From assembly GCF_014217545.1 (NCBI RefSeq), contig NZ_CP043178.1, forward strand, positions 3,782,001-3,846,000: DNA of 64,000 bases, in the 5' to 3' direction. A model generated the notes under the pieces. The model had not been told where the DNA came from and did not search any database. It saw only the letters and a list, made by a program, of their open reading frames with translations. Each line of letters opens with the position of its first letter. Within the stretch, counting starts at the first letter, position 1. Shown one piece after another: positions 1 to 59,463 of the stretch. The DNA is from Pseudarthrobacter sp. NBSH8. GTDB lineage: Bacteria > Actinomycetota > Actinomycetes > Actinomycetales > Micrococcaceae. The translations under genes were made by a program, and so were the position numbers.

Positions 1-630
1 GGACCCGCCGTCGTGATTGATGCCGACGAAGGCATCCGCGCCGGCACCACCATCGAGACGCTGGCGGCACTGAAACCCGCCTTCTCCAAGGATCCGGCGG
101 CCACCATCACCGCCGGTTCGGCCTCCCCACTGTCCGACGGCGCGGCCGCCGTTGTGGTGGCCAGCAAGTCAGCAGCGGAAGCGGCCGGCCTTAGCTGGAT
201 CGCGGAGATCGGTAGCCACGGCCAGACCGCCGGACCGGACGGGTCCCTGCATTCCCAGCCGTCCCGCGCCATTGAACAGGCCCTGAAACTTGAAGGGCTG
301 AGCATTGACAACGTGGACCTGATTGAGATCAACGAAGCCTTCGCGTCGGTGGTACTGCAGTCAGCCAAGGACCTGGGGATCGACGCGGACAGGATCAACG
401 CCGACGGCGGCGCCATCGCCTTGGGCCACCCGGTGGGCGCATCGGGGGCCCGCCTGGTCCTGCATCAGGCACTGGCGCTGAACCGGCGCGGCGGCGGGAC
501 GGGCGTGGTTGCCTTGTGCGGCGGCGGTGGCCAGGGCGACGCCCTGATCCTCAAAGCCCGACCCACACCCCTCCTCCAAAGCAACGCGGGGTCACTTAAC
601 GCCCATGCGGAGGCTTTGGACGGGCGCTAA
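1..630 (+). CDS. Thiolase (acetyl-CoA C-acyltransferase), C-terminal part; start lies before the window
   Basis: The reading frame is open from base 1, so this is the C-terminal half of a thiolase, which condenses or cleaves acyl-CoA units in fatty-acid or ketone metabolism. Three active-site blocks are visible: INEAFA (about 328-345), GHPVGASG (about 424-447, catalytic His) and CGGGGQG (about 515-535, catalytic Cys). The family normally ends soon after the last block, near the ALIL residues at about 544-555. Here the frame runs on about 25 codons, and the last 16 codons plus the TAA stop lie inside a long palindromic repeat (580-646), so the tail was probably added by that repeat. An acyl-CoA synthetase follows on the same strand, consistent with beta-oxidation or a related catabolic cluster. 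The precise substrate cannot be judged. Confidence 0.93.
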
Positions 631-646
631 GTGACCCCGCGTTGCT
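580..646. repeat. Palindromic repeat, family B, copy 1
   Basis: Two 25-base arms (580-604 and 622-646) pair at 24 of 25 positions around a 17-base loop. The core of the arm is CAACGCGGGGTCAC. The same arm core and a related loop (CAT, then GGAGG and a CTTT) occur at 52837-52901. The right arm contains the thiolase stop codon. The perfection of the stem and its recurrence identify a dispersed element, not chance dyad symmetry. Confidence 0.9.
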
Positions 647-677
647 GTCAACCACTCCACTAGCGGGACAGGACACC

Positions 678-2261
678 ATGAACACTTCACCTACCGCCGA
701 AGAGGGTTTCGGGACCATCTCCGTTGCCGCAATCCTGGCTGAATCAGCCGCCCGCTTTCCGGACTCCGAGGCCCTTGTGGTGGGCGAGGAGCGGGTGACC
801 TACAGCGAACTCTGGGAACAGACGCGCGCATATGCCGGTGCGTTGCGGGACCGTGGCGTGGGGCACGCCAGCCGCGTGGCCCTGCTGATGCCCAATGTTG
901 CTGATTTCGCCCGGGTCTACTACGCGGTCCTCGCGCTGGGCGGCGTGGTGGTGCCGTTGCATGCGCTGCTGAAGGGCAGGGAGATCGAGTACATGCTGCG
1001 CGACAGCGGCGCGCAGCTGCTCGTCTGCGCCGGACCGCTCCTTGAGGAAGGTGCCAAAGGCGCCGCGGCCGCGGGCATCGACGCCGTCACCGTCCTGGTG
1101 CCGGAGGGGCCCGAAGGTGCCGCCCGGCTGGAGACCGAAGCGGCAGGCGCCGAGCCCATCAGCACCTGGCTGCCGCTGCGGCCCTTCGAGACGGCCACGA
1201 TTCTGTACACATCCGGGACCACCGGCCAGCCCAAGGGCGCCTTGGGCAGCCACTTCGCCATTGTGGAACAGACCAATACGCTGCTGACCAGCACGTTTGA
1301 CCTCCGCCGCGGTGACGTCATCTTCGGAGGACTGCCGATGTTCCACACCTTCGGCCAGACGTGCGTACTCAACACCGGGCTGCGGGCGGGGGCCACCATC
1401 GTGATGCTGCCCAAGTTCAGCGGGGATGCAGCCCTGGATGCCCTCGCCCGGCACAACATCAACGTCTTCTTCGGCGTGCCCACCATGTACATCGCCATGC
1501 TCGAAGCCGCCCGCACCAACACCGGCCGGTCCAACGCCCTGCGCTACTGCATCTCCGGCGGCGCGTCCCTGCCTGTGGCGGTGATGGACAGGTTCAAGAC
1601 GGAATTCGGCTCGGACATTTACGAAGGCTACGGCCTGACCGAGACGTCCCCGGTTGCCACCTTCAACCATGTAGGCAAAGCGCCGCGGCCCGGAACGGTA
1701 GGCCAGGCCATTTGGGGAGTCCAGGTGGAGATCGCCCGCGCGGACGTCCAGGATGCCATCGAGCTGCAGCCCACGGGCGAGTTAGGCGAGCTGGTGGTCC
1801 GGGGGCACAACCTCTTCACGGGCTACCTCAACCGGCCCGAAGCCACCGCAGAGGCTGTGGTGGACGGTTGGTTCCGGACCGGCGACCTGGGCACCAAGGA
1901 CGGGGACGGCTACCTCCGGATCCTGGACCGGAAGAAGGAGATGATCATCCGGAACGGCTTTAACGTCTACCCGCGCGAGGTAGAGGAAGTCCTCAGCCGG
2001 CACGATGCAGTCCTGAGCGTTGCCGTCTATGGCGTCCCCGACGAAACCCACGGGCAGGAGGTGGCGGCCGCCGTCGTCCTCAATCCGGGCAGCAGCGCCA
2101 CCGTTGATGAGTTGCGGGACTTCGCCGCCGCGGAATTGGCGGCCTATAAGTATCCGCGGATCATTACCCTAGTCACCGAATTCCCCACCGGCCCCAGCGG
2201 CAAGGTCCTCAAGCGCGAACTCACCGCCCGGTACAGCGCCGCCGATACTCCAACAGGGTGA
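678..2261 (+). CDS. Acyl-CoA synthetase (class I adenylate-forming, FadD-like)
   Basis: About 527 residues. It activates a carboxylic acid through an acyl-adenylate and transfers it to CoA. Visible motifs in order: the phosphate-binding loop TILYTSGTTGQPKG, the A5 motif YGLTETSP, the A7/A8 hinge region GWFRTGDLG followed by DRKKEMIIRNGFNVYP, and the A10 lysine block PTGPSGKVLKREL at the C-terminus. This is the full family length. The ATG at 678 is preferred over upstream TTG codons because an AGGA-like ribosome site precedes it and the upstream extension (from 642) would begin inside the palindromic repeat. It follows the thiolase on the same strand, suggesting shared use in fatty or aromatic acid breakdown. 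Chain-length preference cannot be read from the sequence. Confidence 0.92.
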   Translation: MNTSPTAEEGFGTISVAAILAESAARFPDSEALVVGEERVTYSELWEQTRAYAGALRDRGVGHASRVALLMPNVADFARVYYAVLALGGVVVPLHALLKGREIEYMLRDSGAQLLVCAGPLLEEGAKGAAAAGIDAVTVLVPEGPEGAARLETEAAGAEPISTWLPLRPFETATILYTSGTTGQPKGALGSHFAIVEQTNTLLTSTFDLRRGDVIFGGLPMFHTFGQTCVLNTGLRAGATIVMLPKFSGDAALDALARHNINVFFGVPTMYIAMLEAARTNTGRSNALRYCISGGASLPVAVMDRFKTEFGSDIYEGYGLTETSPVATFNHVGKAPRPGTVGQAIWGVQVEIARADVQDAIELQPTGELGELVVRGHNLFTGYLNRPEATAEAVVDGWFRTGDLGTKDGDGYLRILDRKKEMIIRNGFNVYPREVEEVLSRHDAVLSVAVYGVPDETHGQEVAAAVVLNPGSSATVDELRDFAAAELAAYKYPRIITLVTEFPTGPSGKVLKRELTARYSAADTPTG

Positions 2262-3035
2262 TCAGGCGGGAATGATGCGGAACAGGAAACGCGTCCGGAC
2301 CATGACCCACAGGAGCCCCAGGATCACGGCGTAGGCAGCCGTGTTGAGGAGAATGGCGCCCTGCTGCAGCGCCGGGATGGTTCGCTGACCGGACCCGTCA
2401 TGAGGCCGGACGCGTCCAGCCGGGCACTTGCCGCTGCGGCCACGTCGGCTGCGGGGCTGTAGCAGACTTCAGTCTGCAGGAGGAACGGCTTGTCCCGTTG
2501 CGCCACGTAGGTGGCGTAGAAGTCCTCGTTTGCCTGCTCCGGTCAGCATCCCGGCCAGTTCCCCGGGGGCAGCCACGGTGTTGACGGCTGCCGTTCCGGC
2601 GGTGTCGTCATGGTAGGCCGACAGCCCTAACCATTCCACGGCGTCTTCCCCGGGAGAGTACGGCGCGTAAGCGGCATCGGTGCCGTCCCAGATGCCGTCG
2701 CCGTTGGTGTCCGACAGGGCAAAGCGGTAGTCCCGCCCCAGCCCCGGAAGCCCGCCGAAATCCTGGTGATCTCGGCGGCAAATGACTGGGCGGCGTCGTC
2801 GTCGATCTGCTGCAGCGGAACCGTGGGTTTGACGGTGAGCATGGCATGGGAGCCCAGGGCTGCAGCCTGGTCCAGGAACTGCCGGATAGCGATGGTTTCC
2901 GAGGACCGGAAGGGGATGGAAATGTCATGGCCCAGCAGAGCCGGCGTCGCTCCGGGACTGTGTTGGCGGCGCGGGCGGCGGCCGGCGCCTTTGCAAACTC
3001 TGTCTGCCTCACCTTTGGGTCCGGTTCAGCCATGC
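2262..3035 (-). pseudogene. Decayed GH26-like (mannanase-type) glycosidase with a C-terminal membrane segment
   Basis: On the minus strand recognisable protein is spread over different frames. Around 2942-2770 the frame reads GHDISIPF..., AMLTVKPTVPL and DDDAAQSFAAEITRI. It then shifts to DTNGDGIWDGTD and YSPGEDAVEWLGLSAYHDD (about 2770-2555). It shifts again to DFYATYVAQRDKPFLLQTEV (about 2545-2480), and once more to a hydrophobic C-terminal helix ending FRIIPA (stop at 2262-2264). The GEDAVEWLGLSAYH and KPFLL pieces resemble GH26 beta-mannanase-type enzymes. At least three frameshifts are needed to join the pieces, and no intact start was found, so this is called a pseudogene. The family assignment is moderate; sequencing error cannot be excluded for any single shift. 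Confidence 0.6.
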
Positions 3036-3044
3036 TTGGCCTCA

Positions 3045-3069
3045 GGTCCCAGGTCCCAGGTCCCAGGAC
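3045..3069. repeat. Short tandem repeat, 7-base unit
   Basis: The unit CAGGTCC is repeated three times followed by CAGG. The unit length is not a multiple of three. It sits at the probable 5' end of the decayed GH26-like gene, so copy-number change here would shift the frame. Confidence 0.75.
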
Positions 3070-3234
3070 CACCAGCGGCATCAGACGCTGCGCACGGGCG
3101 ACCCCGACGAGGGTCTGCGGTCCCGCCCCCACTCGGTTGTCCCGTCAGCGCCGGGGTTACGGAAACACGCGTTGGTTACGGAACATGACGACGGCGGCGG
3201 TGCGGCGGGGCGGGGCGAGTGTTACGTTTTTGGG

Positions 3235-3345
3235 GAGTAATGAGAACCGGCGCCAAGCCCTGACTGGCCGGTCGGCAACCCTCCCTTTCGCGGCGGGGTG
3301 CCTCAGGTGAATACTCGGCATATCGACCCATTCGAGCTGCAAGCG
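3235..3345 (+). promoter_or_regulatory. SAM riboswitch, SAM-IV type, ahead of the metZ operon
   Basis: The leader contains the conserved series CGCCAAGCCC, GGCCGGTCGGCAACCCTCC, GCGGGGTGCC and GGTGAATAC, in the order seen in SAM-IV riboswitches of actinobacteria. The closing helix is formed by GAGTA (3235-3239) and TACTC (3312-3316). It lies directly upstream of a small operon ending in metZ, whose product feeds methionine and thus SAM synthesis, so SAM-dependent repression is the expected effect. The 3' boundary is approximate because the downstream pseudoknot element of this class was not folded here. Confidence 0.85.
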
Positions 3346-3364
3346 TGAAAGAAGGAGTTCCGTC

Positions 3365-3622
3365 GTGTCTGACGCCCCCGCCCCTGAAAAGAAACTGTCG
3401 TACCGGCTTGTCACCGGGCCGGACGACAGGTCTTTCTGTGAACGGATTTCCACTGCCCTGGCCGAAGGGTATGTCCTGCACGGCAGCCCGGCCGCGACGT
3501 CCAACGGAGGTGTTGTGATCGTTGCGCAGGCACTCATCCTCCCGTCGGCCATCGCCACCGCCGATGCCGCCGTCGCCTCTGCCGTGGAAGACCTCGATTT
3601 CGACGGCGAGGGCCACGCGTGA
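3365..3622 (+). CDS. DUF1737 family small protein
   Basis: 85 residues, GTG start preceded by a GAAGGAG ribosome site about seven bases upstream. The block SYRLVTGPDDRSFCERIS, then ALAEGYVLHGSPA and GGVVIVAQAL, fits the DUF1737 family, whose members often consist of little more than this domain. The function is unknown. It is the first gene after the SAM riboswitch, and its stop overlaps the GTG of the rhodanese gene by four bases (GTGA). This implies translational coupling and a role linked to sulfur or methionine metabolism. No signal peptide or membrane segment is present. Confidence 0.85.
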   Translation: MSDAPAPEKKLSYRLVTGPDDRSFCERISTALAEGYVLHGSPAATSNGGVVIVAQALILPSAIATADAAVASAVEDLDFDGEGHA

Positions 3623-5237: not shown

Positions 5238-5255
5238 CCGGAGGCGGCGGCCGGT

Positions 5256-6158: not shown

Positions 6159-6180
6159 TAGCTTTCCTTAATAGAGCTAA
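6158..6180. promoter_or_regulatory. Candidate LysG operator
   Basis: TTAGCT (6158-6163) and AGCTAA (6175-6180) form a perfect 6-base dyad with an 11-base spacer, the T-N11-A layout of LysR boxes. A further TTTAGCT lies at about 6186-6192. The site lies between lysG and lysE and overlaps the lysG start region, so it could serve both activation of lysE and autoregulation. Confidence 0.65.
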
Positions 6181-6228
6181 GAATATTTAGCTGGAGTAAT
6201 CCTACGTCCGGCCCGTACGTTGGAGGAT

Positions 6229-7626: not shown

Positions 7627-7672
7627 TGCTGAGGCCGGCGCGAAATGCGTCAGGGGGAACGCTCAGAAAATC

Positions 7673-14646: not shown

Positions 14647-14724
14647 TCGGTCCTCCTGAGGATCAGGAGGGGAAAGTGCCCCGGCGTGCGGCGCTGCCGC
14701 CGTTTCCGGACACTTCGAGAACTC

Positions 14725-14845
14725 GACTCCCTTGCGCCGGTACTAACCGGATCAGGTTCGAGGGTCTGCGGCTGTCCGCACTCTCAGCGCCTGCCTGCGG
14801 TTCCCTGGCAATGCCAGTGATGTCCGACGGCGGCGCTCCCCTGTC
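14725..14845 (-). promoter_or_regulatory. TPP riboswitch (THI element)
   Basis: Read on the minus strand, the leader holds the classical blocks AGGGGAGC, GCTGAGAGTGCGG, GACCCTCGAACCTGATC and CGGTTAGTACCGGCGCAAGG, in the order and spacing of thiamine pyrophosphate riboswitches. It lies about 80 bases ahead of the ykoE-type gene and is expected to shut the operon down when thiamine is sufficient. Confidence 0.95.
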
Positions 14846-14908
14846 GTAATAAATCTGCCCTGATGGGCGTACTCCAGTTTACACCGCGGGCGGGGTAGAT
14901 TGTGGGCC

Positions 14909-15772: not shown

Positions 15773-15837
15773 TGAGTTTTTGTCCAGATAAAGGCCTCCA
15801 AACGGCCCTGACGCCGTGTTATCTGGACAAAAACTCA
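15773..15837. repeat. Palindromic repeat, family C
   Basis: A perfect 19-base inverted repeat (15773-15791 and 15819-15837; core TTTTTGTCCAGATAA) encloses a 27-base loop. It sits between the convergent DUF4235 and mnhG genes, 16 and 36 bases from their stops. It may act as a bidirectional terminator. No second copy of this arm was noticed in the window. Confidence 0.88.
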
Positions 15838-37651: not shown

Positions 37652-37785
37652 GGGCAACCCTCTCGCGCTTAACGCGGGTTTTCGGGCAACCCTCTCTCAC
37701 TTCCTGAAAAACGGACGAACCCTCCCCCACAGGACGTGAGAGAGGGTTCGTCGTTCGCGCCCCGAAAGTGAGAGAGCGTCAGGGT
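37652..37785. repeat. Compound palindromic repeat, family D
   Basis: GGGCAACCCTCTC occurs twice in direct orientation (37652-37664 and 37684-37696). The second copy begins a stem whose partner, rich in GTGAGAG and ending CAGGGTTG, lies at about 37765-37785. Inside it ACGAACCCTC (37715-37724) pairs perfectly with GAGGGTTCGT (37742-37751). The element fills much of the 307-base gap between putA and the permease stop. No other copy was noticed in this window. Confidence 0.75.
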
Positions 37786-37804: not shown

Positions 37805-39268
37805 TCAGCCGAGGGGCCGGTGCATTTCCACGGCTTCCTCGTGCCGGGGACTGTCAGGGTTCATCAGCGAGTGCTTACGGCCGTAGCCGAAGTAGATGAC
37901 CAGGCCAATGACGAGCCAGACGCTGAAACGCAGCCACGTCTCCCAGTGCAGCTGAAACATCAGGAATCCGGACGCCAGGACGCCGAAGGCCGGAACAAGC
38001 GGCATCAGGGGCAGCCGGAAGGTGCGTGGTGCGTCAGGCTTCTTGTAGCGGAACACGATCACCGAGAAGCAGACGACGACGAACGCGGCCAGGATGCCGA
38101 TGTTGGTCAGGTCGGCGACTGCCTTGATCGGGAACACGCCGGCCAGCAGGGCGGAAGCGATGCCGGCAATCCAGGTGACGCGCTGGGGAGTGCCGTGGCG
38201 GTCCGTCTTGGCGAACCAGCCAGGGAGCAAACCGTCGCGGCTCATCGAGAACCAGACACGGGTGACGCCGAGCAGGAAGGTGAGCATCACCGTCAGGATG
38301 GACAACACGGCAAAGACCGAGATGATCGTGGCGATGACCGGCAGTCCCACCCCGTTGAACGCGGAGGCGAAACCGGCTTTGGGGTCGATGTCCTGGTAGT
38401 TCTGCATGCCGGTGAGTACCAGGGTGGCGGCGACGTACAGGAGCATCGCGATGATGAGGGACATGATGATGGCCTTCGGCATGTGCTTCTTGCCGTCGGT
38501 CGCCTCTTCCGCGGCGGTACTCATGGCGTCGTAACCGAAGACGGCGAAGAACACCGTGGCCGCGCCCGCTACAACCGGGCCGAAGCCGCTGGGCATAAAC
38601 GGGTTGTAGTTGCCCGTATCGATGTAAAAGATGCCGAGACCGATGATGAACAGGATCAGGACTACCTTGATTCCGACGGCCACGAGTTCGAAGCGGCCGA
38701 ACGTCTTTGTGCCTCGGGACAGGATCCAGGTCACGAGCAGGCAAACCGCGATCGCCGGGATGTTGACGATACCGCCAGTTCCCTCGTCCGGAGTCGCGGT
38801 CATCCAGGCGGGCATATGGATGCCAATGCCGGTCAGAAACGCGTCGAAGTAGCCGGATATGCCGATGGCCACTACTGCCACAATCGCGATGTACTCGAGC
38901 AGCAGATCCCAGCCAATGAACCAACCAATGATCTCGCCGAGCGCCACGTAGCCGTACGTGTAGGCCGAGCCCGCCCGAGGGATCATGCCGGCGAATTCCG
39001 CGTAGGACAGCGCGGCCGCCGCGCTGGCGAGGCCGGCGATCAGGAAGGAAAACAGCACCGCCGGGCCGACGCCGGGGTTGTCTCCGCTACCGGCAGCCAC
39101 CAGCCCGGCCAGGGAGAAAATACCGACGCCGATGATCCCGCCGACGCCGATGGCCGTCAGTTGCCAGAGCCCGAGGCTCTTGAACAATCCGCTGTGTTTG
39201 TTCTCTTCTTCGATGTCGTCAATGGGCTTGCGCCTCATGATCGACTGGGTCAAATCTTTAGGGCTCAT
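37805..39268 (-). CDS. APC-family amino-acid permease
   Basis: 487 residues with about 12 membrane segments. The family signature LTAIGVGGIIGVGIFSLAG lies near residue 38, and FSFLIAGLASAAAALSYAEF and PRAGSAYTYGYVALGE follow. These resemble the cationic amino-acid transporter branch (YfnA/CAT-like). The ATG at 39268 has an AGGAG seven bases upstream; longer readings are rejected. It is divergent from a LysR gene 153 bases away and located next to putA, so it may import proline or a related amino acid; substrate is inferred. Confidence 0.88.
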   Translation of the reverse strand: MSPKDLTQSIMRRKPIDDIEEENKHSGLFKSLGLWQLTAIGVGGIIGVGIFSLAGLVAAGSGDNPGVGPAVLFSFLIAGLASAAAALSYAEFAGMIPRAGSAYTYGYVALGEIIGWFIGWDLLLEYIAIVAVVAIGISGYFDAFLTGIGIHMPAWMTATPDEGTGGIVNIPAIAVCLLVTWILSRGTKTFGRFELVAVGIKVVLILFIIGLGIFYIDTGNYNPFMPSGFGPVVAGAATVFFAVFGYDAMSTAAEEATDGKKHMPKAIIMSLIIAMLLYVAATLVLTGMQNYQDIDPKAGFASAFNGVGLPVIATIISVFAVLSILTVMLTFLLGVTRVWFSMSRDGLLPGWFAKTDRHGTPQRVTWIAGIASALLAGVFPIKAVADLTNIGILAAFVVVCFSVIVFRYKKPDAPRTFRLPLMPLVPAFGVLASGFLMFQLHWETWLRFSVWLVIGLVIYFGYGRKHSLMNPDSPRHEEAVEMHRPLG

Positions 39269-39364
39269 CAAGGACTCCTGCGTGGGGTGCGGCCCCATCG
39301 CGGCGCCCCGGAAGAGGCTGTGACAGGGGTGACTCAGGTACACCAGTATGCAAGCGCAATTGCG

Positions 39365-45935: not shown

Positions 45936-45970
45936 CGCGTCGCGTCGCGTCGTGTCGTGTCGTGTCACGT
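45936..45970. repeat. Pentanucleotide tandem repeat
   Basis: Seven 5-base units in a row: CGCGT three times, CGTGT three times, then CACGT. The last units run into the left arm of the family A palindrome. It lies between the OtsB-GH15 gene and the GH130 operon and could change copy number by slippage. Confidence 0.85.
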
Positions 45971-46063
45971 TGGGCAGGCTTTAACGCCCGACGACGGCGC
46001 CCCACCGCGCAAATCCGCGGCAGGGCGTCGTCGTGCTTTCCAAAAGGCTGCCGCGCGTGACAC
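45962..46063. repeat. Palindromic repeat, family A, copy 1
   Basis: Outer 8-base arms GTGTCACG and CGTGACAC are perfect inverses. The next blocks GCAGGCTTT and AAAAGGCTGC pair with one mismatch, and inner CGACGACG and CGTCGTCG also pair. The central AATCCGCGGC is shared with copy 4. The element ends five bases before the stop of the GH130 gene. Confidence 0.85.
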
Positions 46064-46068
46064 CGGGG

Positions 46069-47154
46069 TCAGACCCGGTCCAGTTTGGCCACACCGATTT
46101 TGGAGTCCGCCATCCCGTAGAACACAAACAGCTGGTCGCCGATTTTCTCGATGGCGGTGGGGAACACCACGTTCGGCACGATCCCGGAAATCTCGTCCTC
46201 GGTTTCGGGCGCCAACAAGGGCTTGTCGCTGCGGGCGATGACCTGGGACGGATCATCCGCGGACAGGATCATGGCCGCCGCGGTGTAGTTGACGTTCTGC
46301 TGCTGCTCGAAGGCAGACGCGGCCATCTTGCCGGCCACACCGTGGTGGATCAGGAGCCAGCCTTCGTCCACGCGGATGGGGGGCGGGCCGCCGCCGATCT
46401 TCAGTTCCTCAAAGGGGAACTCGCTGAGGGCCACCAGACGGTGCTTGCCCAGGTGCACCAGGTTGCGCAGGTCCCGCTCCACGTCGGCCACGGCCACGTA
46501 GGAGATCCAGATGCCGGGACGGTTGTCCGTCACGCCGGCGGGCAGGTGCTCGCCTTCGCCGGGACGGATCCAGCCGAGGTCCCACATGGGGCGGTGCAGG
46601 ATGGCGTAGGAGGGCACGCCGTCGGGGTCGTTCACCGGCTCCGGGAAGAACACCGCGTCCTTGTTGGGAAAGAGGTTCAGGTCCATGGAGAGATCGGCCT
46701 GGTACTCGAAGAAGCAGGGGCCCAGGCGTTCCCAGTTCCGGAGGTCCTCGGAGTGCGCGAAGGCGAGGCGGGGCCCCAGCGGGCCGTACGCCACGTAGGT
46801 CATGAGGTGCTTGCCGAGGGCGGGCACCCAGGTGGTGCGCGGATCCTCGGTGCCGGCGTTGTTCATGCCGCGTTCCCAGCCTTCGTCCGGGGCCAGGACC
46901 ACACCCTCGCGTTCCACGCCGGTGGGCACGCCGTCATCGTTGATGACCACCTTGGCGAGGCCCACGCGGGACACGTTGCCGGTGGCCACAAGCCGCGGCA
47001 GCAGGTACAGCTCGCCGTCCGGGCCGCGGCCGCTGGCGGGGTTGAGAACGCCCTCGGCCTCGAAGTCGTTGCCGGGCTCGGGGGTCATGACGACGCCGGC
47101 GCGGGTGAGGGTGAAGGGGACAGTGGGCAGTACAGAAGTGTGGGGGGAAGTCAT
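46069..47154 (-). CDS. GH130 family glycoside phosphorylase (mannoside type)
   Basis: 361 residues. The five-bladed propeller family is identified by FEAEGVLNPASGR near the N-terminus and the NAGTEDPRTTWV motif that holds the general acid Asp. DAVFFPEPVND, GGGPPPIRVDEGWLLIHHG and ISGIVPNVVFPTAI also match. GH130 enzymes use phosphate to cleave beta-mannosidic bonds, releasing mannose 1-phosphate. It is the last gene of the ABC-transporter operon (three bases after the second permease), pointing to cytoplasmic phosphorolysis of imported manno-oligosaccharides. Linkage is inferred, not shown. Confidence 0.9.
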   Translation of the reverse strand: MTSPHTSVLPTVPFTLTRAGVVMTPEPGNDFEAEGVLNPASGRGPDGELYLLPRLVATGNVSRVGLAKVVINDDGVPTGVEREGVVLAPDEGWERGMNNAGTEDPRTTWVPALGKHLMTYVAYGPLGPRLAFAHSEDLRNWERLGPCFFEYQADLSMDLNLFPNKDAVFFPEPVNDPDGVPSYAILHRPMWDLGWIRPGEGEHLPAGVTDNRPGIWISYVAVADVERDLRNLVHLGKHRLVALSEFPFEELKIGGGPPPIRVDEGWLLIHHGVAGKMAASAFEQQQNVNYTAAAMILSADDPSQVIARSDKPLLAPETEDEISGIVPNVVFPTAIEKIGDQLFVFYGMADSKIGVAKLDRV

Positions 47155-51604: not shown

Positions 51605-51707
51605 CGCGTCACGCACGGCACGCTTTTGGACCACGACGGCTGCGTCCGCCGCGTGATACCGGGGACCCCGCCGTCGGGCCTTCCAAAAGGGTGCGTGGCG
51701 TGACGCG
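51605..51707. repeat. Palindromic repeat, family A, copy 2
   Basis: The 25-base arms (51605-51629 and 51683-51707) pair at 21 of 25 positions; the left arm contains GGCACGCTTTTGG and the right arm CCAAAAGGGTGCG. Inner GACGGC and GCCGTC also pair. It ends 33 bases from the stop of the luciferase-like gene. Confidence 0.88.
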
Positions 51708-51740: not shown

Positions 51741-52730
51741 CTACACCCGGGCCAGCCCGGCACCCTCCGCCAGCAGCTCCACGGAGCGGATCCTGGCCTC
51801 GGTGCCGGTGTTCTGGTGCGCCACGATCAGTTCGTCGGCGTCGGCGTCCTTGGCGAACCCGTCCAGGTAGTCGAGCACCACGTCCGCGGTTCCGATGGCC
51901 GAGTACGTCATCATCTGCGAGACGTGCTGGCCCTGCGGGGAGTCCAGGATCATGTCCGCTTCATCGTCCGAGAACTCGCGCCCGCCGCCGAAGAAAAGTG
52001 AGACGCGGGCGCGCAGGGTGGCACGGAAAGCCGTCTGTGCCTCGGCGGCGGTATCGGCGGCAATGACGTTGACGCCGGCGATCACGTGCGGTGCGTCCAG
52101 CTGGGCCGAGGGCTTGAATTCACTGCGGTAGAGGGCCACGGCGTCCTGCAGGGCGTTGGGGGCGAAATGCGAGGCGAAGGCGTACGGCAGACCCAACTGG
52201 GCGGCAAGGCGGGCGCCGAACAATGACGATCCGAGGATGTACAGCGGCACATTGGTCCCCTTGCCCGGGGTGGCCTCCACACCCTGGATCCGGGTGGGAC
52301 CGGTGAGGTAGCCCTGCAGCTCCAGCACATCCTGCGGGAAAGTGTCCGCGGACATGGGGTCCCGGCGCAGCGCGCGCATGGTGTTCTGGTCGCTGCCGGG
52401 CGCGCGGCCCAGGCCAAGGTCGATCCGGCCCGGGTGCAGCGTCTCCAACGTGCCGAACTGCTCGGCGATGGTCAGCGGCGAGTGGTTGGGCAGCATGATT
52501 CCGCCGGCGCCCAACCTGATGGTCTTGGTGTGGGCGGCCACGTGGGCGATCAGCACGCTGGTGGCCGACGACGCGATGGCGGACATGTTGTGGTGCTCCG
52601 CGTACCAGATCCGGCGGTACCCAAGCTCTTCCGCCCGCTGCGCCATGGCCACGCTGCCCGCGAAACTCTCCGCCGCCGTCTGGCCTTTGCCGATGGTTGC
52701 CAGATCAAGGATGGAGAGGGGAAGCGTCAC
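51741..52730 (-). CDS. LLM-class flavin-dependent oxidoreductase (luciferase-like)
   Basis: 329 residues. The bacterial-luciferase-like TIM barrel shows [59 protein letters not shown] and [18 protein letters not shown]. This matches the MsnO8/YhbW-like group. It uses reduced FMN to oxidise an unknown substrate. It stands alone between two palindromic repeats (51605-51707 and 52837-52901). Confidence 0.9.
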
Positions 52731-52836: not shown

Positions 52837-52901
52837 CCAACGCGGGGTCACATCGCGCCCATCCCGGAGGACTTTATAGGCGCGATGTGACCCCGCGTTG
52901 G
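52837..52901. repeat. Palindromic repeat, family B, copy 2
   Basis: A perfect 23-base inverted repeat (52837-52859 and 52879-52901) with a 19-base loop. The arm core CAACGCGGGGTCAC and the loop element GGAGG-ACTTT match copy 1 at 580-646. It ends 14 bases before the stop of the coiled-coil gene. Confidence 0.92.
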
Positions 52902-52915
52902 GTTGGACTCACGAA

Positions 52916-55249
52916 TCAGGCGGCGCACCCCCCAAGGGCGATCGATGAATCGACGGCTGCGATCTGCTTCTGGACGTCCCCGAGCCTGGTCTGGAGGGCG
53001 GTGACGACGTCTTTCTGTGCCTTGACTGCGTCGTTGCTCGGCTTCTTCTGGCCCTGGAGTTCCCGAAGCTTTGTCTGCGCCGCTGTAACCTGCCCGTCGA
53101 GGGTGGTCAGTTGCGACTGCAGGGACGCCAAGTTTGCCTCCGCGGCGCTGATTTCCCCGTTGAGCTGGTTGAGCTGGCTCAGCAGCGGATTCACGCGTGT
53201 CTGCAGGGCCAGTACTTCTGCTTCTTTGGAGGTGATTTGGGCGTTAATGTTGGCCAGGTCGGCTACGAATTTGTCCCCGATCTGGTTAAGCGCGGCGATT
53301 TCGCTAGTCTTCGCCGTGACGGCGCTGTTGGCCCCATCGACTGCAGCCTGGAGGCTGGGGAGCTGGCCCTGCAAAGCTGCGAGCTCAGTCTTCTTCGCAT
53401 CCATTGCGGATTCGGCCGCGGCTTGGGCCTGTTGGGCGTCGGCGAGGGCGGACTTGCGCGCATCCAGGACGGCCTGCTGGTCGGCGATGGCAGCGTGGGC
53501 TTCCTGGACACCCGTTTCCAGTCCCGGCAACGCGGCTTCGAGGTCCGTTACGATCTTTTCCTGTGCCGCCACAGCACTGGCGGCTGCCGCTGCGGCACCC
53601 TGCAGGGCCGGGAGCTCGTTCTGCAGGTTGGTCAGCTCTGCCTGTTTGGCGGTGACTGCGGCGTTGGCCTGATTTACGGCGGACTGGAGTGAGGGTGCCA
53701 GGGCTTTCAGCGCCGCAAGGTCTGCTTCCTTGGAGGTGATAGCGGCGTCTGCTGCGGTCAGTACAGCCTGCAGCGGCGCGGCCTGCTGCTGCAGGGTGCT
53801 GCTTTCCAACTGTTTTGTTAGGAGCTGGGCATTCAGCGTTACGACCTGACTATTCAGCGTGTTGAGGTCGCCCTGCAGGCCGGAGATCAGGGTGTTCTTG
53901 TCAGTGATCTGCGTCGTGATGTTCGCAAGCTGGGTCTGCTTGAGTGTGCGCGAGGCCTCAAGCTCCCGCTTCCTGCTGGAATTTCCATTGATGGCATCGA
54001 TCTGGGCCGTCAAGTTGGCGATTTCGGCTTCAAGACTAGTCTTTGTTGACTGCAGTGTCGCCAAGTCGCCCTGCGCCTGGGCCAGTTGGCTCTGTTTGGC
54101 CGCAATCTGCGTGTTCAGGGTTGCGATCTGGCCCTGAAGCGCGGCAATGGTGACGTTCACCGCGGCGATGTTGTCAGCGTTGGTCCTAACGGCCGCCGCT
54201 GCCGCCGCAGCGTTAGCCTGAAGGGTGGTCAGTTCAGCCTGGGCCGCAGTGATGGCGGCATTCTTGTCTGCGAGGGCGGACGCGGCGCTGGCGGCCGCGG
54301 TCTGGAGGTTTGCCAATTCAGTGGTGGCGGTGGCGATTTGCGCCTGTTTCGCGGTGACGGCAGCGACGGCATCCGCGGCCTTCCCCTGCATGACCGACAA
54401 CGTCTGCTGTGCCGCCGCGACACTTGCCTGCTGCGCCTGCAGGGCATCTTCGGCGGTGGTTCCCGCCTCCTGCAGGCGCTTGAGCTCTGCTTCATCGTCA
54501 GTCACGGCTTGGGACGCGAGGCCGACGGCGGCTGCGGCCTGCTGTGCCGCCGCGGTCAGTGTCAACAGTTCGGCCTGGGCCGCCTGGATCTGCGCTTCCT
54601 TAGCCGAAAGATTGGCCGCGGTGTTGTCTGCTGCCTCTTTCAGCGTGGCAAGCTCGCTCTGGGCTGCGGCGACGGCTTGGTTGTTTGCCGCAATTTTCGC
54701 GTCGACTGCGTCTGCCTGGCTGCGGAGGTCTCCAGCTGCGGCCTGCGCGGCGGCAAGGTCTTTCTGCAACGGCGTCAGCTGATCTTCGACGTCCGACTTC
54801 TGACCTTGCAGTGTGGCGAGGGCAGCCTGGGCGTCAGACACATCGGCGGCCTTTGCTGCCTGATCCGATGTCAGCAGGTCCAGTTGGGACTGGGCGGTCC
54901 CGGTTGCCTGGGTCAGGGCCGTCTCCTGGGCCTCAAGGTCAGCCAGCGCTTTGTCCGCGTCGGCAATCTGCGTCGTCAAAGTTGATGCCGTCGCCTGCAG
55001 CACGCTGCGTTGGGCCTGCAGGGCAACGATCGCGTCGGCGTTCTTCCTGGCCGCGGCCTTTAGGAGGTTCTCCTGAACCGAGCCCCGGTGGGCCAACTGG
55101 TTCACCACGCCGTTGCAGATGCCCGTGACAGTTCCCGGAGCTGCGGTAGCGGGCACGGCGAAGACCATCGTGCTGGTCAGGAGCCCGGGTAGGACAACCG
55201 CGGCCGCAAGCCGCCTGGTGAGAGAGGATTTTGACGCTGCAGTAGGCAT
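52916..55249 (-). CDS. Large secreted coiled-coil protein
   Basis: 777 residues. A signal peptide (LAAAVVLPGLLTSTMVFA, cleavage near PATAA) is followed by about 700 residues of Ala/Gln/Leu/Thr-rich heptad sequence with recurring units of the type AxxAxLxxLQ and ITSKEADLAALKA. No catalytic domain was recognised. Only two cysteines are evident, C45 (TGICNGVV) and C775 (LGGCAA), close to the two ends of the mature chain. It has no wall-sorting signal or transmembrane anchor. A structural or surface-spacing role is possible; relatives could be SMC-like or RipA-type in coil character only. The family is not recognised. Confidence 0.85.
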   Translation of the reverse strand: MPTAASKSSLTRRLAAAVVLPGLLTSTMVFAVPATAAPGTVTGICNGVVNQLAHRGSVQENLLKAAARKNADAIVALQAQRSVLQATASTLTTQIADADKALADLEAQETALTQATGTAQSQLDLLTSDQAAKAADVSDAQAALATLQGQKSDVEDQLTPLQKDLAAAQAAAGDLRSQADAVDAKIAANNQAVAAAQSELATLKEAADNTAANLSAKEAQIQAAQAELLTLTAAAQQAAAAVGLASQAVTDDEAELKRLQEAGTTAEDALQAQQASVAAAQQTLSVMQGKAADAVAAVTAKQAQIATATTELANLQTAAASAASALADKNAAITAAQAELTTLQANAAAAAAAVRTNADNIAAVNVTIAALQGQIATLNTQIAAKQSQLAQAQGDLATLQSTKTSLEAEIANLTAQIDAINGNSSRKRELEASRTLKQTQLANITTQITDKNTLISGLQGDLNTLNSQVVTLNAQLLTKQLESSTLQQQAAPLQAVLTAADAAITSKEADLAALKALAPSLQSAVNQANAAVTAKQAELTNLQNELPALQGAAAAAASAVAAQEKIVTDLEAALPGLETGVQEAHAAIADQQAVLDARKSALADAQQAQAAAESAMDAKKTELAALQGQLPSLQAAVDGANSAVTAKTSEIAALNQIGDKFVADLANINAQITSKEAEVLALQTRVNPLLSQLNQLNGEISAAEANLASLQSQLTTLDGQVTAAQTKLRELQGQKKPSNDAVKAQKDVVTALQTRLGDVQKQIAAVDSSIALGGCAA

Positions 55250-55424
55250 GGAGACTCCTGGTGAGACCGGTAGCGCGGGCCAGTCCGGCCGCTATTAGTC
55301 ACCGTAAGGGGACACCCCGATGGTGCACACGCGTAATGGGCACCTGTCTTTTTGGCGTGAGTACTCGTTTTTCTGGGAAACGGCCGGGCCACTACTCGCT
55401 TCGTCGCCCCGCTAAGCTAGCGGC

Positions 55425-57152
55425 ATGGCCAACAAAACCACTGCAGAAAAACTCGCCACCATCCAGAAGGGCTATACGCTGGAAGGCGCCACCATCGAGC
55501 TGGGTGCCGCCATTGTGGACGGCGAACTCCACAAGGAAGCCCAGGTCCGCCTGCCGCTGGCCATGATGAACAGGCACGGCCTGGTAGCCGGCGCCACCGG
55601 CACCGGCAAGACGGTCACGCTGCACATGATGGCCGAGCAGCTGTCCACAGCCGGAGTTCCCGTGTTCCTCGCGGACATCAAGGGCGATCTTTCCGGCCTG
55701 GCCACGGCGGCCGCCGGCAGTGAGAAGCTGAAGGCCCGCACCGACAGCATCGGCCAGGCCTGGGCCGGCAAGACGTTCCCGGTGGAGTTCCTGGCCCTGG
55801 GCGGCGACGGCAATGGAATTCCCGTCCGTGCCACCATCACATCGTTTGGCCCCATCCTGCTCTCGCGCGTAATGGAGCTCAACGACACCCAGGAGTCCAG
55901 CCTGCAGCTGGTCTTCCACTTTGCGGACAAAAACAACCTCGAGCTGATCGACCTCAAGGACCTCCGGGCAGTCATCCAGTTCCTCACCTCCGACGAAGGC
56001 AAGGACGCGCTGGAGGAACTGGGCGGCCTGTCAAAGTCCACCGCAGGTGTCATCCTCCGTGAACTGGTGAATCTTGAAGCGCAGGGCCTGGAAAGGTTCT
56101 TCGGCGAGCCTGAATTCGACACGGCCGAGCTGCTCCGGACCGCCCCCGACGGGCGCGGCGTCATTACCTGCCTGGAGCTGCCCACCCTGCAGACCAAGCC
56201 GATGCTGTTCTCCACCTTCCTGATGTGGCTGTTGGCGGACCTGTTCGAGGACCTCCCCGAGGCCGGTGACCTGGACAAGCCCAAACTGGTGTTCTTTCTT
56301 GACGAGGCACACCTGCTGTTCAACGGCGCATCCAGGGCCTTCCTGAACGCCATCACCACCACGGTCCGGCTGATCCGTTCAAAGGGCGTGGGGATATTCT
56401 TCGTTACCCAAACCCCCAAAGACGTTTCCGCCAGCGTCCTGGGCCAGCTGGCCAACCGCATCCAGCACGCCCTCCGGGCCTTCACACCCGAGGACGCCAA
56501 GGCCCTGAAAGCCACTGTGTCAACGTTCCCGGTCAGCGACTATGACCTCGAGGAAACCCTCACGTCAGCTGGGATCGGGGAGGCCATCATTACCGTTATG
56601 AATGAGAAGGGCGCCCCGACGCCGGTTGCCCACACCCGGCTGCGTGCACCCGAGTCCGTCATGGGCCCCAGCACAGAGGAGCTCATCAATAGCACCGTGG
56701 GCGGGTCCGCTTTGCTCGCCAAGTACGGGACCGCGGTAGACAATGTCTCCGCGTACGAGAAACTTACCGGCAAGACCGCGGCTCCCACCGGCGGAGCCGC
56801 CCCGGGTCAGCCTCCGGCTCCAAGGACTTCCGGGCACTCACGTTCGGGCCAGTCACGTTCGGGCCAGGCCGACGTCGACGCCGAGGCCCGCAGGATCGAG
56901 GAGGAAATCCTGGGACGGCCCAGCAGCCGGCCCACACCGGTGCCCGATCGTGGCGCCGGCACTGATGCGCCCTCGCGGCGTGCACCGGAACCTGCGGCCC
57001 CTGCCGGCGGCGGCATGGCGGGCGACCTTGCCGGAGTACTCGGCGGTGCCCTGGGCGGCGGGTTGAAGAGCATGGCCCGTTCCCTGGGTACGCAGCTTGG
57101 CCGGGAACTGCTCCGCGGCGTTTTCGGCACCTCGTCCCGGCGCCGGCGGTAG
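55425..57152 (+). CDS. HerA-like / DUF853 ATPase (YjgR type)
   Basis: 575 residues. Walker A is GLVAGATGTGKTVTLHMM near residue 52, and Walker B with the following glutamate is KLVFFLDEAHLLFN. DIKGDLSGLA and VGIFFVTQTPKDVSASVLGQL are family hallmarks of DUF853 (YjgR), a HerA-related ATPase group of unknown role. The C-terminal 110 residues form a Pro/Ser/Arg-rich linker followed by a Gly-rich segment. Cytoplasmic. It is not accompanied by a NurA-like nuclease gene, so a HerA-NurA repair system is not supported. Confidence 0.92.
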   Translation: MANKTTAEKLATIQKGYTLEGATIELGAAIVDGELHKEAQVRLPLAMMNRHGLVAGATGTGKTVTLHMMAEQLSTAGVPVFLADIKGDLSGLATAAAGSEKLKARTDSIGQAWAGKTFPVEFLALGGDGNGIPVRATITSFGPILLSRVMELNDTQESSLQLVFHFADKNNLELIDLKDLRAVIQFLTSDEGKDALEELGGLSKSTAGVILRELVNLEAQGLERFFGEPEFDTAELLRTAPDGRGVITCLELPTLQTKPMLFSTFLMWLLADLFEDLPEAGDLDKPKLVFFLDEAHLLFNGASRAFLNAITTTVRLIRSKGVGIFFVTQTPKDVSASVLGQLANRIQHALRAFTPEDAKALKATVSTFPVSDYDLEETLTSAGIGEAIITVMNEKGAPTPVAHTRLRAPESVMGPSTEELINSTVGGSALLAKYGTAVDNVSAYEKLTGKTAAPTGGAAPGQPPAPRTSGHSRSGQSRSGQADVDAEARRIEEEILGRPSSRPTPVPDRGAGTDAPSRRAPEPAAPAGGGMAGDLAGVLGGALGGGLKSMARSLGTQLGRELLRGVFGTSSRRRR

Positions 57153-57281
57153 TAAAAACCGGACGATATCCGCCCTGGCTTTCCCGCCGTCGGACGTCAG
57201 GAAAGCCGACGCACCCTGCTACACGGGGCGGCGGCAACACCTGTGTTCAGCGGGCTTGCAGGTAACGTAAGGGAAGTGCAG

Positions 57282-58274
57282 ATGAGTCAGGCGTTGGTGA
57301 GGATGGCAGCAGGGTGGCTGCTTGGCCTCATGCTTGCCGTGGCCGCGGCCATCGTTGGGGTCAACGTGGTGAACAACACGGTGGCCAGTCCACAGCAGCC
57401 TGTCCGGGAATACCTGGACGCCCTCCACGAGGGTGACGGCGGCAAGGCGCTGGGCCTGTTGCGTGCCACAGTGCCGCCCAGCAACGCCGCCATGCTCGAC
57501 GGCACAGCACTGCAGACGGCCGCTTCCCGCCTGGCGAACATCACCATCGGCGATGCCGAAGAACGCTCAGGAAACCAGGTCATGGTGCCCGTGCAATATA
57601 CGATCGATGGCAGCAGGCTTCACACCGAGTTTCTACTGGAGAAGAACGGCACCGAATGGCTGTTCTTTAATACGTGGGCGTTTGTGCATTCGCGGCTGCC
57701 CACAGTGGGCCTGACGGCGGTGAACGCGAGCGAAGCCAACCTCAACGGCGTCCCGGTGAACATGCCCCAGGGCAGAAATTCGTTCGCCGTATTCTACCCG
57801 GGCGAATACGAGGCATCCCTGAACGGTGAATACTTCGCTGCTCCCGCCACGCGCGCCACGGTGACGTCCCGCGATGTCCCGGTGGCTCCCTTGAACCTGC
57901 TGACCGAGGCCACCGACCAGCTGCGGAAGGACGTTGGTGCGAAGGTACAGGAGTTTCTGGACACCTGCGCCGCCCAAGCCGTGAAGCAGCAAAAGCTGCA
58001 ACCGGACTGCCCCTTCTACTTCGCCAGCCACAACAATGTGGACGACGGCACCATCAAGTGGACCATCACGAAGTACCCGGAGATTTCCATCGAGCCCTTC
58101 GATGGCCGCTGGGTGATTGCACCCCTCGACGGGAAGGCCAAGGTGGAGGCGGTCCAGCAGAGTTCCTTCACAGGCGCCTGGTTCCCGCTCAACGAAGAGG
58201 TGGACTTCAGCTTCACCACCCGCCTGGACGTCGCCGGCGACACCATCAGGGTCACCCCGCTGCTGAGCTACTAG
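57282..58274 (+). CDS. Membrane-anchored hypothetical protein
   Basis: 330 residues. One N-terminal membrane helix (GWLLGLMLAVAAAIVGVNVV) is followed by an extracytoplasmic region. The segment SPQQPVREYLDALHEGDGGKAL resembles NTF2-like or DUF4878-type tails, and a repeated beta-rich pattern follows (VPVQYTIDGSRLHTEFLLEK, GTEWLFFNTWAF). Two cysteines (TCAAQAV and PDCPFYF) may pair outside. The ATG at 57282 follows AAGGGAAG. Function unknown. Confidence 0.78.
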   Translation: MSQALVRMAAGWLLGLMLAVAAAIVGVNVVNNTVASPQQPVREYLDALHEGDGGKALGLLRATVPPSNAAMLDGTALQTAASRLANITIGDAEERSGNQVMVPVQYTIDGSRLHTEFLLEKNGTEWLFFNTWAFVHSRLPTVGLTAVNASEANLNGVPVNMPQGRNSFAVFYPGEYEASLNGEYFAAPATRATVTSRDVPVAPLNLLTEATDQLRKDVGAKVQEFLDTCAAQAVKQQKLQPDCPFYFASHNNVDDGTIKWTITKYPEISIEPFDGRWVIAPLDGKAKVEAVQQSSFTGAWFPLNEEVDFSFTTRLDVAGDTIRVTPLLSY

Positions 58275-58321
58275 CCCGGCGCCGCTGGCCTGGCTGCCGC
58301 AGACCCGCGGGCGGCGGAGCG

Positions 58322-58432
58322 CGTGCCACGCACAGCACGCTTTTGCCGCCACCGATCGCGCCAGCCCCTGACTTTCCGGGGCTTCCCCCCCCCCCCCCCC
58401 CCGACCGCCCAAAAGAATGCTCTCCGTGACGT
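58322..58432. repeat. Palindromic repeat, family A, copy 3
   Basis: The left arm contains CACGCACAGCACGCTTTTG (58328-58346) and the right arm CCAAAAGAATGCTCTCCGTG. The middle is disturbed by a run of 17 C. It lies between convergent genes, 22 bases from the stop of the AbiEi/DUF559-like gene. Confidence 0.7.
58386..58402. repeat. Homopolymer of 17 C
   Basis: Seventeen consecutive C residues lie inside family A copy 3. Such a run is prone to slippage in the cell and in sequencing, so its true length is uncertain. Confidence 0.8.
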
Positions 58433-58454
58433 GAGGGCTGCGTGATGGAAGCCG

Positions 58455-59276
58455 TTACCGGCGCCTGGCCAGCACTGATACGACCTGCCCCACCATGTCC
58501 GCCGGCGAGTAAACAACATCCGCGTAGTAGTACCGCAGCGTGGTGCAGCCCTGGACCACCGACTCGTTGTTCCGGCGGTGGTCCTTCTTCACCTGGGACC
58601 ACTCAGCATGTTGCAGGCCGTCCAGCTCCACCACCAGCCAGCCCTCCAACAGGAGATCAACCTGACCCACCCGTTCAAGGTAGGCCTGGGTTTCCACTTG
58701 GATCCCGGCCTGCCGGAAACAGGTCCGGGCCAAGGTTTCCAAAAGCGAGTCCGAACCCCGGTCCACCCACCTCAGGATCTCACGCGCAGGGCCGTTCCGC
58801 CTGCCGGGCAGCCTGGCCCTCAGAAAATCCACGGTCATGTCTCCCCGCTGAACGGCACATTCCACCATCACCAGCGAGTCGGCAAAAGGCAGACACCTCA
58901 GTGCGTGAATCAGGACATCGGCCAGTGCGGCTGTGGGCCTGTCAGGCTGTGGCGCCAGCAACAGCCCGGCATGGTGGATTCGGCTGCCGGCGACCGCATC
59001 GGCCCTGCGGTGATGCACATGCAGGGCGCCCGAGGAGGGCAGCGACCACAACCCATGGTGGGGAGCGGCGCTGGCACACGTCAGGAGTTGGCGGTTGCGC
59101 AACAGGCCCACAAGCTCTGCCGGCGCCGTCGGGAGCGAGTACAACCCGCGGTCCGGCTGGAGGAGTTGCCCGCCCCGGACTGCCCGGCGCAACGACGCAT
59201 CATCTATTCCGAGCCTGCCCAGCGCCGGGCGCCGGGCTGCTCCGCCGCAAAGCTGCAGTGCTTGGTGCACATCCAT
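58455..59276 (-). CDS. AbiEi-like N-terminal / DUF559-like C-terminal protein
   Basis: 273 residues. The N-terminal part (LGRLGIDDASLRRAVRGGQL, RGLYSLPTAP) resembles the winged-helix AbiEi antitoxin domain. The C-terminal part (ETQAYLERVGQVDLLLEGWL, VVELDGLQHAEWSQVKKDHR) matches the DUF559/Vsr-like nuclease fold, with the D-x(n)-ELDG and K residues expected of a PD-(D/E)XK-type site. Such proteins are frequent in actinobacteria and their role is uncertain; nuclease activity is inferred. No toxin gene is adjacent. The ATG at 59276 was chosen. The gene is bracketed by two family A repeats. Confidence 0.78.
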   Translation of the reverse strand: MDVHQALQLCGGAARRPALGRLGIDDASLRRAVRGGQLLQPDRGLYSLPTAPAELVGLLRNRQLLTCASAAPHHGLWSLPSSGALHVHHRRADAVAGSRIHHAGLLLAPQPDRPTAALADVLIHALRCLPFADSLVMVECAVQRGDMTVDFLRARLPGRRNGPAREILRWVDRGSDSLLETLARTCFRQAGIQVETQAYLERVGQVDLLLEGWLVVELDGLQHAEWSQVKKDHRRNNESVVQGCTTLRYYYADVVYSPADMVGQVVSVLARRR

Positions 59277-59360
59277 GTGGCCATGCTGCCTCCGCCGGGG
59301 GCCTGGCCGCGCCCCATGCCGCCCGTATGTGGATAACTCGGCGCCCCGGTAGTCACCCAA

Positions 59361-59463
59361 GGCGTCACGCAGAGCACGCTTTTGGCTACGGGCGGAGACG
59401 TAACCCCCGGCAATCCGCGGCCGGGCGCCGCCGCAAGACGCAATAGGCTGCCTCCGTGACACG
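59361..59463. repeat. Palindromic repeat, family A, copy 4
   Basis: The left part GGCGTCACGCAGAGCACGCT (59361-59380) continues TTTGG, as in copies 2 and 3. The right part AGGCTGCCTCCGTGACAC matches copy 1, as does the central AATCCGCGGC. It ends 45 bases from the stop of the thioredoxin-NHL gene. Confidence 0.8.

What the first reader, a model, noticed from the sequence alone, without database searches (positions are those of the whole stretch)
580..59463. Long palindromes cluster directly after stop codons across the window
Eight elements of 65-135 bases were found: 580-646, 15773-15837, 37652-37785, 45962-46063, 51605-51707, 52837-52901, 58322-58432 and 59361-59463. They fall into at least four sequence families (A: four copies, B: two, C and D: one each). 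All eight lie from 5 to about 45 bases past a stop codon, or contain the stop itself. That placement is far from random and suggests a shared job at mRNA 3' ends: termination, protection against exonucleases, or insertion sites that avoid harm. Different families occupying the same niche is the unusual point.
Basis: partly seen in the sequence, partly recalled or inferred. Interest (0 to 1): 0.75.

Follow-up and report, generated by a model that had tools for sequence, protein, structure and literature searches.

The report
Arthrobacter gene-end palindrome families
Soil bacteria of the Arthrobacter group carry several unrelated families of long DNA palindromes just behind their genes, probably two-way stop signals for transcription, and two of these families keep their arm sequences and overall length far more strictly than a simple hairpin would need.

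Summary
All eight palindromes exist; each lies 5-47 bases past a stop codon or contains it. Genome-wide, family B has 32 copies by pattern and D 16. Of 30 own B copies 25, and of 14 own D copies 13, lie within 30 bases of a stop, against 11.6% of random intergenic insertion points. In the order, B was found in 4 of 297 genomes, all in one of 94 genera; within that genus B is in 59 of 91 genomes and D in 22 of 91. Both families span 63 bp in nearly every copy. At orthologous gene ends, relatives carry B, D, an unrelated long hairpin or nothing; two B/D swaps were seen. At orthologous B sites the outer 13 bp and an inner GCCC hardly change (1-3%) while the paired spacer between them changes by 40%, so hairpin stability alone does not explain the conservation. 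No Y1 (RAYT-type) transposase was found in the genome. Best reading: REP-like two-way terminator or 3'-end hairpins whose arms are also read by an unknown factor. Termination and the factor are inferred, not shown.

The parts
580..646 (.). B-family palindrome; overlaps the 3' end of a thiolase gene (13-630) and supplies its last codons and stop
15773..15837 (.). D-family palindrome between convergent genes (DUF4235 gene and Na+/H+ antiporter subunit G gene); a B element sits at this site in Paenarthrobacter nicotinovorans SSBW5
37652..37785 (.). C-family hairpin with the core GACGCTCTCTCACTT / its complement, 19 bases past the stop of an amino acid permease gene (37805-39343, minus strand)
45962..46063 (.). 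A-family hairpin with an inner hairpin, 5 bases past the stop of a GH130-like gene (46069-47154, minus strand)
51605..51707 (.). A-family hairpin with an inner hairpin, 33 bases past the stop of a luciferase-like monooxygenase gene (51741-52730, minus strand); alignable in G004
52837..52901 (.). B-family palindrome 14 bases past the stop of the coiled-coil gene 52916-55168 (minus strand)
58322..58432 (.). A-family hairpin, degraded, with an 18-C run, 47 bases past the stop of gene 57303-58274
59361..59463 (.). A-family hairpin 45 bases past the stop of gene 59509-61560 (minus strand)
63753..63792 (.). ninth, family-less 18-bp perfect hairpin of ordinary terminator type, 17 bases before gene 63810-63998 (minus strand)

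Best explanation
Families B and D (and by analogy the other long gene-end hairpins) are repeated extragenic palindromes that act at mRNA 3' ends, most likely as two-way transcription terminators and 3'-end caps, often between convergent genes. B looks like an intrinsic terminator of a GC-rich genome: a stem of about 24 bp followed by a short T-rich tail on both strands. On top of the hairpin, each arm carries a sequence-specific block (13 bp plus an inner GCCC in B) at a fixed spacing, so I infer that a sequence-specific cellular factor also reads the arms, on DNA or on RNA. Shown: position, length, conservation pattern, covariation, lineage limits, replacement of one family by another at the same gene end. 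Inferred: termination, 3'-end protection, the factor, and how families spread.
For: Placement at stops and between convergent genes against a random-insertion null. Stem covariation: 62 double-changed cells against 25.6 in shuffles, 0 of 500 as high. B tail 3.51 T in 10 bases (135 of 175 with 3 or more) against 1.93 (54 of 188) in controls. Arms against interior at orthologous sites: outer block 5 of 390, GCCC 3 of 120, paired spacer 60 of 150 changed (15 pairs outside AL07); AL07 0 of 260, 0 of 80, 9 of 100. Fixed length: 147 of 152 B copies; 117 of 121 exact arm pairs at one spacing; D 14 of 14. Other strong hairpins share the niche: 16 of 45 convergent regions against 1 in shuffles, and B or D is exchanged for other hairpins at the same gene end. 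Lineage-specific arm words of D.
Against: No RNA 3'-end data. D has no T tail: 1.62 T in 10 bases, below the control. 55 of 118 orthologous gene ends have no strong hairpin, so the elements are dispensable there. Two of 30 own B copies are at no stop. D arms are less clean: 10 of 64 changed in Hiyo4 against 20 of 54 in the interior. The arm comparison needs a detectable match, which favours shared arms. Mirror-image repair of palindromes can imitate covariation without selection (from general knowledge).
Confidence: 0.55

Rival explanations
1. They are non-autonomous mobile palindromes (REP or MITE type) that a transposase moves in trans; gene ends are merely safe landing sites.
For: Families repeated within a genome and patchy between genomes: B in 59 of 91, D in 22 of 91. 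Presence or absence differs at orthologous gene ends. D arm words shared genome-wide in some lineages. Terminal inverted repeats of fixed length.
Against: No Y1 transposase in this genome. No close paralogs: nearest B interiors differ at 6 of 35, nearest D at 9 of 27. Vertical inheritance at resident sites: 12 of 13 scored orthologous interiors are closer than any own paralog. Arms do not decay at resident sites. No clean empty site at six sites examined. No larger element bounded by B arms in 117 named loci.
Confidence: 0.25
2. They are ordinary intrinsic terminators, and the shared arms are a by-product of descent from a few duplicated ancestors, without any reading factor.
For: Same niche as ordinary hairpins; B has a T tail; stem covariation.
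Against: The paired spacer changes 40% while the adjacent paired outer block changes 1.3%, so equal pairing is kept with unequal sequence change. Interior length hardly varies although its sequence does. D lacks a T tail.
Confidence: 0.15
3. They are DNA sites for a chromosome-organising protein, placed at gene ends only to stay out of the way.
For: Fixed spacing and arm words; only 5 of 36 B and 3 of 15 D places lie in the half of the chromosome opposite coordinate 0.
Against: Exchange for unrelated hairpins at the same gene end and stem covariation point to the hairpin. The origin position was not established.
Confidence: 0.03
4. They are paired DNA uptake words, as in Neisseria and Pasteurellaceae.
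For: A conserved word in inverted pairs at convergent gene ends is what Kingsford and colleagues describe (PMC1852404, passages).
Against: Those words are described as occurring generally 1,000 times or more per genome (same passages); here 76 arm matches with up to one mismatch, 56 of them exact, against 6 for the reversed control, and most lie in B pairs. In 117 loci of other species 242 of 251 exact arms have an exact partner at 47-49 bases.
Confidence: 0.02

Closest known systems
Intrinsic terminators of GC-rich actinobacteria (Streptomyces)
   Same: Long stable stems close to stops, few U after the stem: 3-4 U in the first 10 nt in Streptomyces (PMC12207403, passages) against 3.5 T for B; structured 3' ends without U are also reported (PMC8269248, passages).
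   Different: B and D repeat one arm word at many genes with a fixed 63-bp span; the sequence, not only the pairing, is conserved.
REP elements (GTAG- and CGTC-tagged) and BIMEs
   Same: Extragenic, palindromic, repeated, often between convergent genes; CGTC REPs are said to lack a dedicated transposase (PMC3733652, passages; PMC1525189, passages).
   Different: REPs are described there as 20-40 bp with a tag at one end; B and D are 63 bp and symmetric, and no Y1 transposase was found.
Uptake signal sequences in terminators (Neisseria, Pasteurellaceae)
   Same: Conserved word in inverted pairs at gene ends (PMC1852404, passages).
   Different: Almost no unpaired words, far lower copy number.
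MITEs
   Same: Short, inverted ends, repeated, no coding.
   Different: No target duplication or parent transposon seen in what I examined, and interiors are not shared between copies.

Membership tests
Intrinsic terminators | Hairpin shortly after a stop codon | tested here: met
Intrinsic terminators | U-rich tract after the stem | tested here: inconclusive
   B met: 3.51 T in 10 against 1.93 in controls; D not met: 1.62
Intrinsic terminators | RNA 3' ends at the stem base | not testable with these tools
   no RNA data held
REP elements | Repeated, extragenic, palindromic | tested here: met
   3 of 45 measured stop distances of own B fall inside the called gene
REP elements | Length 20-40 bp with GTAG or CGTC tag at one end | tested here: not met
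   63 bp, symmetric ends; definition from PMC3733652
REP elements | RAYT (Y1) transposase in the genome | tested here: not met
   PF01797: no match in the own genome; 5 of 14 control genomes ring
MITEs | Target-site duplication or precise empty site | tested here: inconclusive
   six sites aligned with relatives, only ragged differences
MITEs | A full-length transposon with the same ends | tested here: inconclusive
   Of 251 exact B arms in 117 named loci (920 kb) the 9 without an exact partner face a damaged (8) or cut-off (1) one; none bounds a larger element. Whole genomes were not scanned for this
Uptake signal sequences | Very many single copies, also inside genes | tested here: not met

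The most novel reading that the evidence does not exclude
Arthrobacter-group bacteria use a previously undescribed class of 63-bp bipartite palindromes as sequence-read, two-way gene-end signals: an unknown trans-acting factor recognises both arms at fixed spacing and limits transcription past gene ends. The arm word changes by lineage (dialects), and whole word families replace one another at the same gene end while the job stays.
Probability: 0.3. Interest if true: 0.8.

Novelty: new variant of a known kind. Interest (0 to 1): 0.55.

Why it matters
If gene-end hairpins in these bacteria carry a sequence word that a factor reads, transcription there would end by a route outside the intrinsic/Rho pair, or with an added partner, and one DNA or RNA bait could fish that factor out. 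The exchange of one family for another at the same gene end, in genomes only a few per cent apart, makes terminator turnover directly testable. A search for four arm strings in 5.39 million open papers gave 0 papers (figures, supplements and closed journals were not searched). In the palindrome papers I looked at, Arthrobacter appeared only as one genome's candidate count (PMC12306157, passages).

Tried and rejected
Uptake words: disfavoured, arms hardly occur singly. RAYT-driven REPs: no Y1 transposase. Phage or plasmid carriage: no match for one B copy in the phage records, two records of one Arthrobacter strain among 72,556 plasmid records, no exact B or D pattern in viral contigs. Known RNA families: Rfam at gathering cut-off gave only a tRNA and two riboswitches in the window. 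A simple terminator scan of 45-64 kb gave 15 sites against 11.7 in shuffles and none of the elements; its limits on stem and loop probably exclude them. Parent transposon: the long gap between two B arms at 3.126-3.128 Mb holds an IS1380-family transposase gene, with TTAGC on both sides of the insert, so it is an insertion into a B copy and not a B-ended transposon. Own arms at 3167941 and 3170878 belong to decayed B copies; 3175652 shows no partner. Recent copying: not seen. A first comparison of orthologous arms required near-intact arms by its pattern and is not used; replace it, though they too need a detectable match. Clean empty sites: six sites aligned, only ragged differences. At sites 17 and 24 relatives may keep a left-arm remnant of D, which could equally be microhomology. 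Paper searches listed nothing on these families; I judged from the listings, and looked at passages of two of them plus two REP papers.

Not tested: whether a candidate factor gene tracks B or D, since gene contents of whole genomes could not be compared here; genome-wide placement of A and C.
Full report
WHAT IS THERE. The window lies at 3,782,001-3,846,000 of a single 4,060,736-base contig. Its closest relative among those I looked at is Pseudarthrobacter sp. AL07, with 88-98% identity at the 25 of 26 gene ends that matched, so it belongs to the Arthrobacter group. Distances to stops were recomputed with a gene-calling script trained on 464 kb of this genome: 16, 19, 5, 33, 14, 47 (or 22 to a weak opposite gene) and 45 bases, with 580-646 overlapping the gene end. 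In that last case the thiolase domain match ends at residue 181 of 205, and the codons from about residue 190 on, stop included, lie in the palindrome.

COPY NUMBERS AND POSITION. BLAST with one B copy found 33 places in the genome, two of them halves of one split copy; the pattern with up to three mismatches gives 32; with damaged copies I list 36. D has 14 places by BLAST and 16 by pattern. A and C are few: A half-arms at 4 places and C cores at 13 places in the roughly 657 kb held, partly composite (A, C and A cores between about 3.0271 and 3.0273 Mb) and, for C, spaced 32 bp apart at two loci. For the 30 own B copies that fit the pattern, 17 are between convergent genes, 11 tandem and 2 divergent; for 14 own D copies 9 are convergent and 5 tandem. 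Within -10 to +30 bases of a stop: 25 of 30, 13 of 14, and 93 of 113 B copies from other species (9 more of 122 lay at a locus edge and were left out), against 11.6% of 57,801 random insertion points in 20 sample stretches.

ARE GENE-END HAIRPINS GENERAL? In 464 kb, strong hairpins (score 12 or more) were found in 16 of 45 convergent, 17 of 148 tandem and 3 of 61 divergent intergenic regions of at least 30 bases, against 1, 1 and 0 in shuffled versions; 123 shorter regions were left out. Many look like ordinary short two-way terminators. So B and D share a niche with ordinary terminators.

DISTRIBUTION. Of 297 genomes drawn from the order, 4 have B, all in one of 94 genera, of which 8 genomes were in the draw. 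Of 91 genomes of that genus, 59 have B (1 to 78 copies) and 22 have D (1 to 43 copies); reversed-pattern controls gave 0. D was not searched outside the genus.

ARCHITECTURE. B reads CAACGCGGGGTCAC, a spacer of about five bases, GCCCat, a loop of 13, and the mirror image. Of 152 B copies matched with a pattern that allows 59-63 bases, 147 are 61 bases between AACG and CGTT: 29 of 30 own and 118 of 122 others. Of 121 exact arm pairs in other species, sought at spacings of 40-60, 117 have one spacing, 3 are one base shorter and 1 is one longer. D is 59 bases between GTTTT and AAAAC in 14 of 14 own copies, with a pattern that allows 55-61. With the flanking pairs both families come to 63 bp. In B the pairs between the conserved blocks covary: 62 cells with changes on both sides against 25.6 in shuffles, 0 of 500 as high, 59 sequences; those 59 are all 29 own copies of the standard length and every fourth of 118 others.

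THE KEY CONTRAST. I compared B at orthologous gene ends without requiring intact arms, but requiring a detectable match (score 18 or more). In 15 pairs from relatives other than AL07 the outer 13 columns of each arm differ at 5 of 390 positions and GCCC at 3 of 120, while the paired spacer between them differs at 60 of 150 and the loop at about 48% (the script counts loop positions twice). In 10 AL07 pairs the figures are 0 of 260, 0 of 80 and 9 of 100. The spacer is as much part of the stem as the outer block, so conservation of the outer block is not simply conservation of pairing. D shows the same tendency less cleanly: arms 5 of 320 against interior 34 of 270 in AL07, but 10 of 64 against 20 of 54 in Hiyo4, 4 of 32 against 9 of 27 in G004 and 11 of 96 against 30 of 81 in G002. 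Caution: requiring a match favours pairs that share something, and the arms are the longest shared part.

TURNOVER AT THE SAME GENE END. I took 26 own sites (12 of 30 B copies, all 14 D copies of the table) and looked at the orthologous gene end, identified by one flanking gene, in seven relatives: 119 regions fetched, 118 read. 63 of 118 have a hairpin of score 14 or more; 0 of 118 shuffles do. By my reading of that table 25 of the 63 are B or B-like, 14 D or D-like and 24 something else; 55 of 118 have no such hairpin. Presence of the own family by alignment, B then D: AL07 10 of 12 and 10 of 12; HLT1-5 1 of 3 and 1 of 8; Hiyo4 6 of 11 and 2 of 13; G004 5 of 11 and 1 of 14; G002 2 of 3 and 3 of 7; G012 1 of 6 and 0 of 4; G011 0 of 8 and 0 of 6. 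Two direct B/D swaps: own B at site 14 is D in AL07 while the more distant G004 has B there, and the window's own D at 15773 is B in Paenarthrobacter nicotinovorans SSBW5. Other replacements: B by a GCGCGAACGGACACTTGAGGCC hairpin (site 3, AL07), B by CATCGACTGCTCCGTAAGTGCC (site 13, HLT1-5), and D by related GTACAGTTGAGGCC hairpins at sites 22 and 24 in G004. In loci that were chosen for having B, 32 of 36 own-B sites with both flanks carry a pattern-fitting B at the same place; of the other four, two hold B with a damaged arm, one a different hairpin (L098), and one only 31 bases between the flanks.

MOBILITY. Nothing shows recent copying: the closest pair among 29 own B interiors differs at 6 of 35 bases and among 14 D interiors at 9 of 27, medians 13 and 15. 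Orthologous B interiors were closer than any own paralog in 12 of 13 scored comparisons; the exception is site 3 in Hiyo4, 13 against 12. The D that AL07 has at site 14 has no near relative among the own or fetched D copies (13 or more of 33 different). Import by recombination, or an ancestral B plus D pair with differential loss (the site 11 region has both), would explain it. D arm words differ by lineage: GTTTTTGTACAG or a close form in at least one arm at 13 of 13 listed places of G008, G321, G337 and G365, and TATGC beside the arm at 14 of 15 places of G319 (counted by eye). This fits spread from one source per lineage or co-evolution with a factor.

MECHANISM. B has marks of a two-way terminator of a GC-rich genome: a long stem, 3.51 T in the 10 bases after it against 1.93 in a control, and an A-rich flank before it. 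Passages of PMC12207403 give 3-4 U in the first 10 nt for Streptomyces, and passages of PMC8269248 describe structured 3' ends that lack U. D has no T tail (1.62) and would have to act as a U-poor hairpin, as a 3'-end cap or through a factor. Fixed arm words, fixed spacing and a free interior are best explained by something that reads the arms. I commit to a terminator or 3'-end hairpin plus a reading factor; the factor is inferred.

WHAT STAYS OPEN. The half of the chromosome opposite coordinate 0 holds 5 of 36 B and 3 of 15 D places (two-sided p 1.3e-5 and 0.035). That coordinate 0 is the replication origin is my guess; GC skew in the samples does not settle it. I cannot say why the elements favour that half.

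Noticed in passing
   Followed up: no
L027 1954-3841 (own genome about 3126435-3128241): An IS1380-family insertion sequence sits inside a B copy, with TTAGC on both sides of the insert.
   Followed up: partly
own genome, whole contig: Only 5 of 36 B and 3 of 15 D places lie in the half opposite coordinate 0.
   Followed up: partly
own genome about 3027096-3027340 (L047): Composite of A and C cores in the order A, C, A; C cores also spaced 32 bp apart at 2.9706 and 3.3141 Mb, like small REP arrays.
   Followed up: no
13-646: A B palindrome has taken over the end of a thiolase gene: the last residues and the stop come from the palindrome.
   Followed up: partly
3236-3351 (+) and 14711-14852 (-): A SAM-IV and a TPP riboswitch in the window.
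   Followed up: no
L233, L250, L262, L298, L316: A further loose group of 54-66 base gene-end hairpins in several relatives, several with a GTCGTTTTGAG-like inner part and variable outer arms; the reverse of B, where the outer arms are fixed.
   Followed up: no
L325 2402-2456 and 5379-5442 (own genome about 3167902 and 3170878): Two decayed B copies, one without its left arm and one with a damaged right arm.
   Followed up: no
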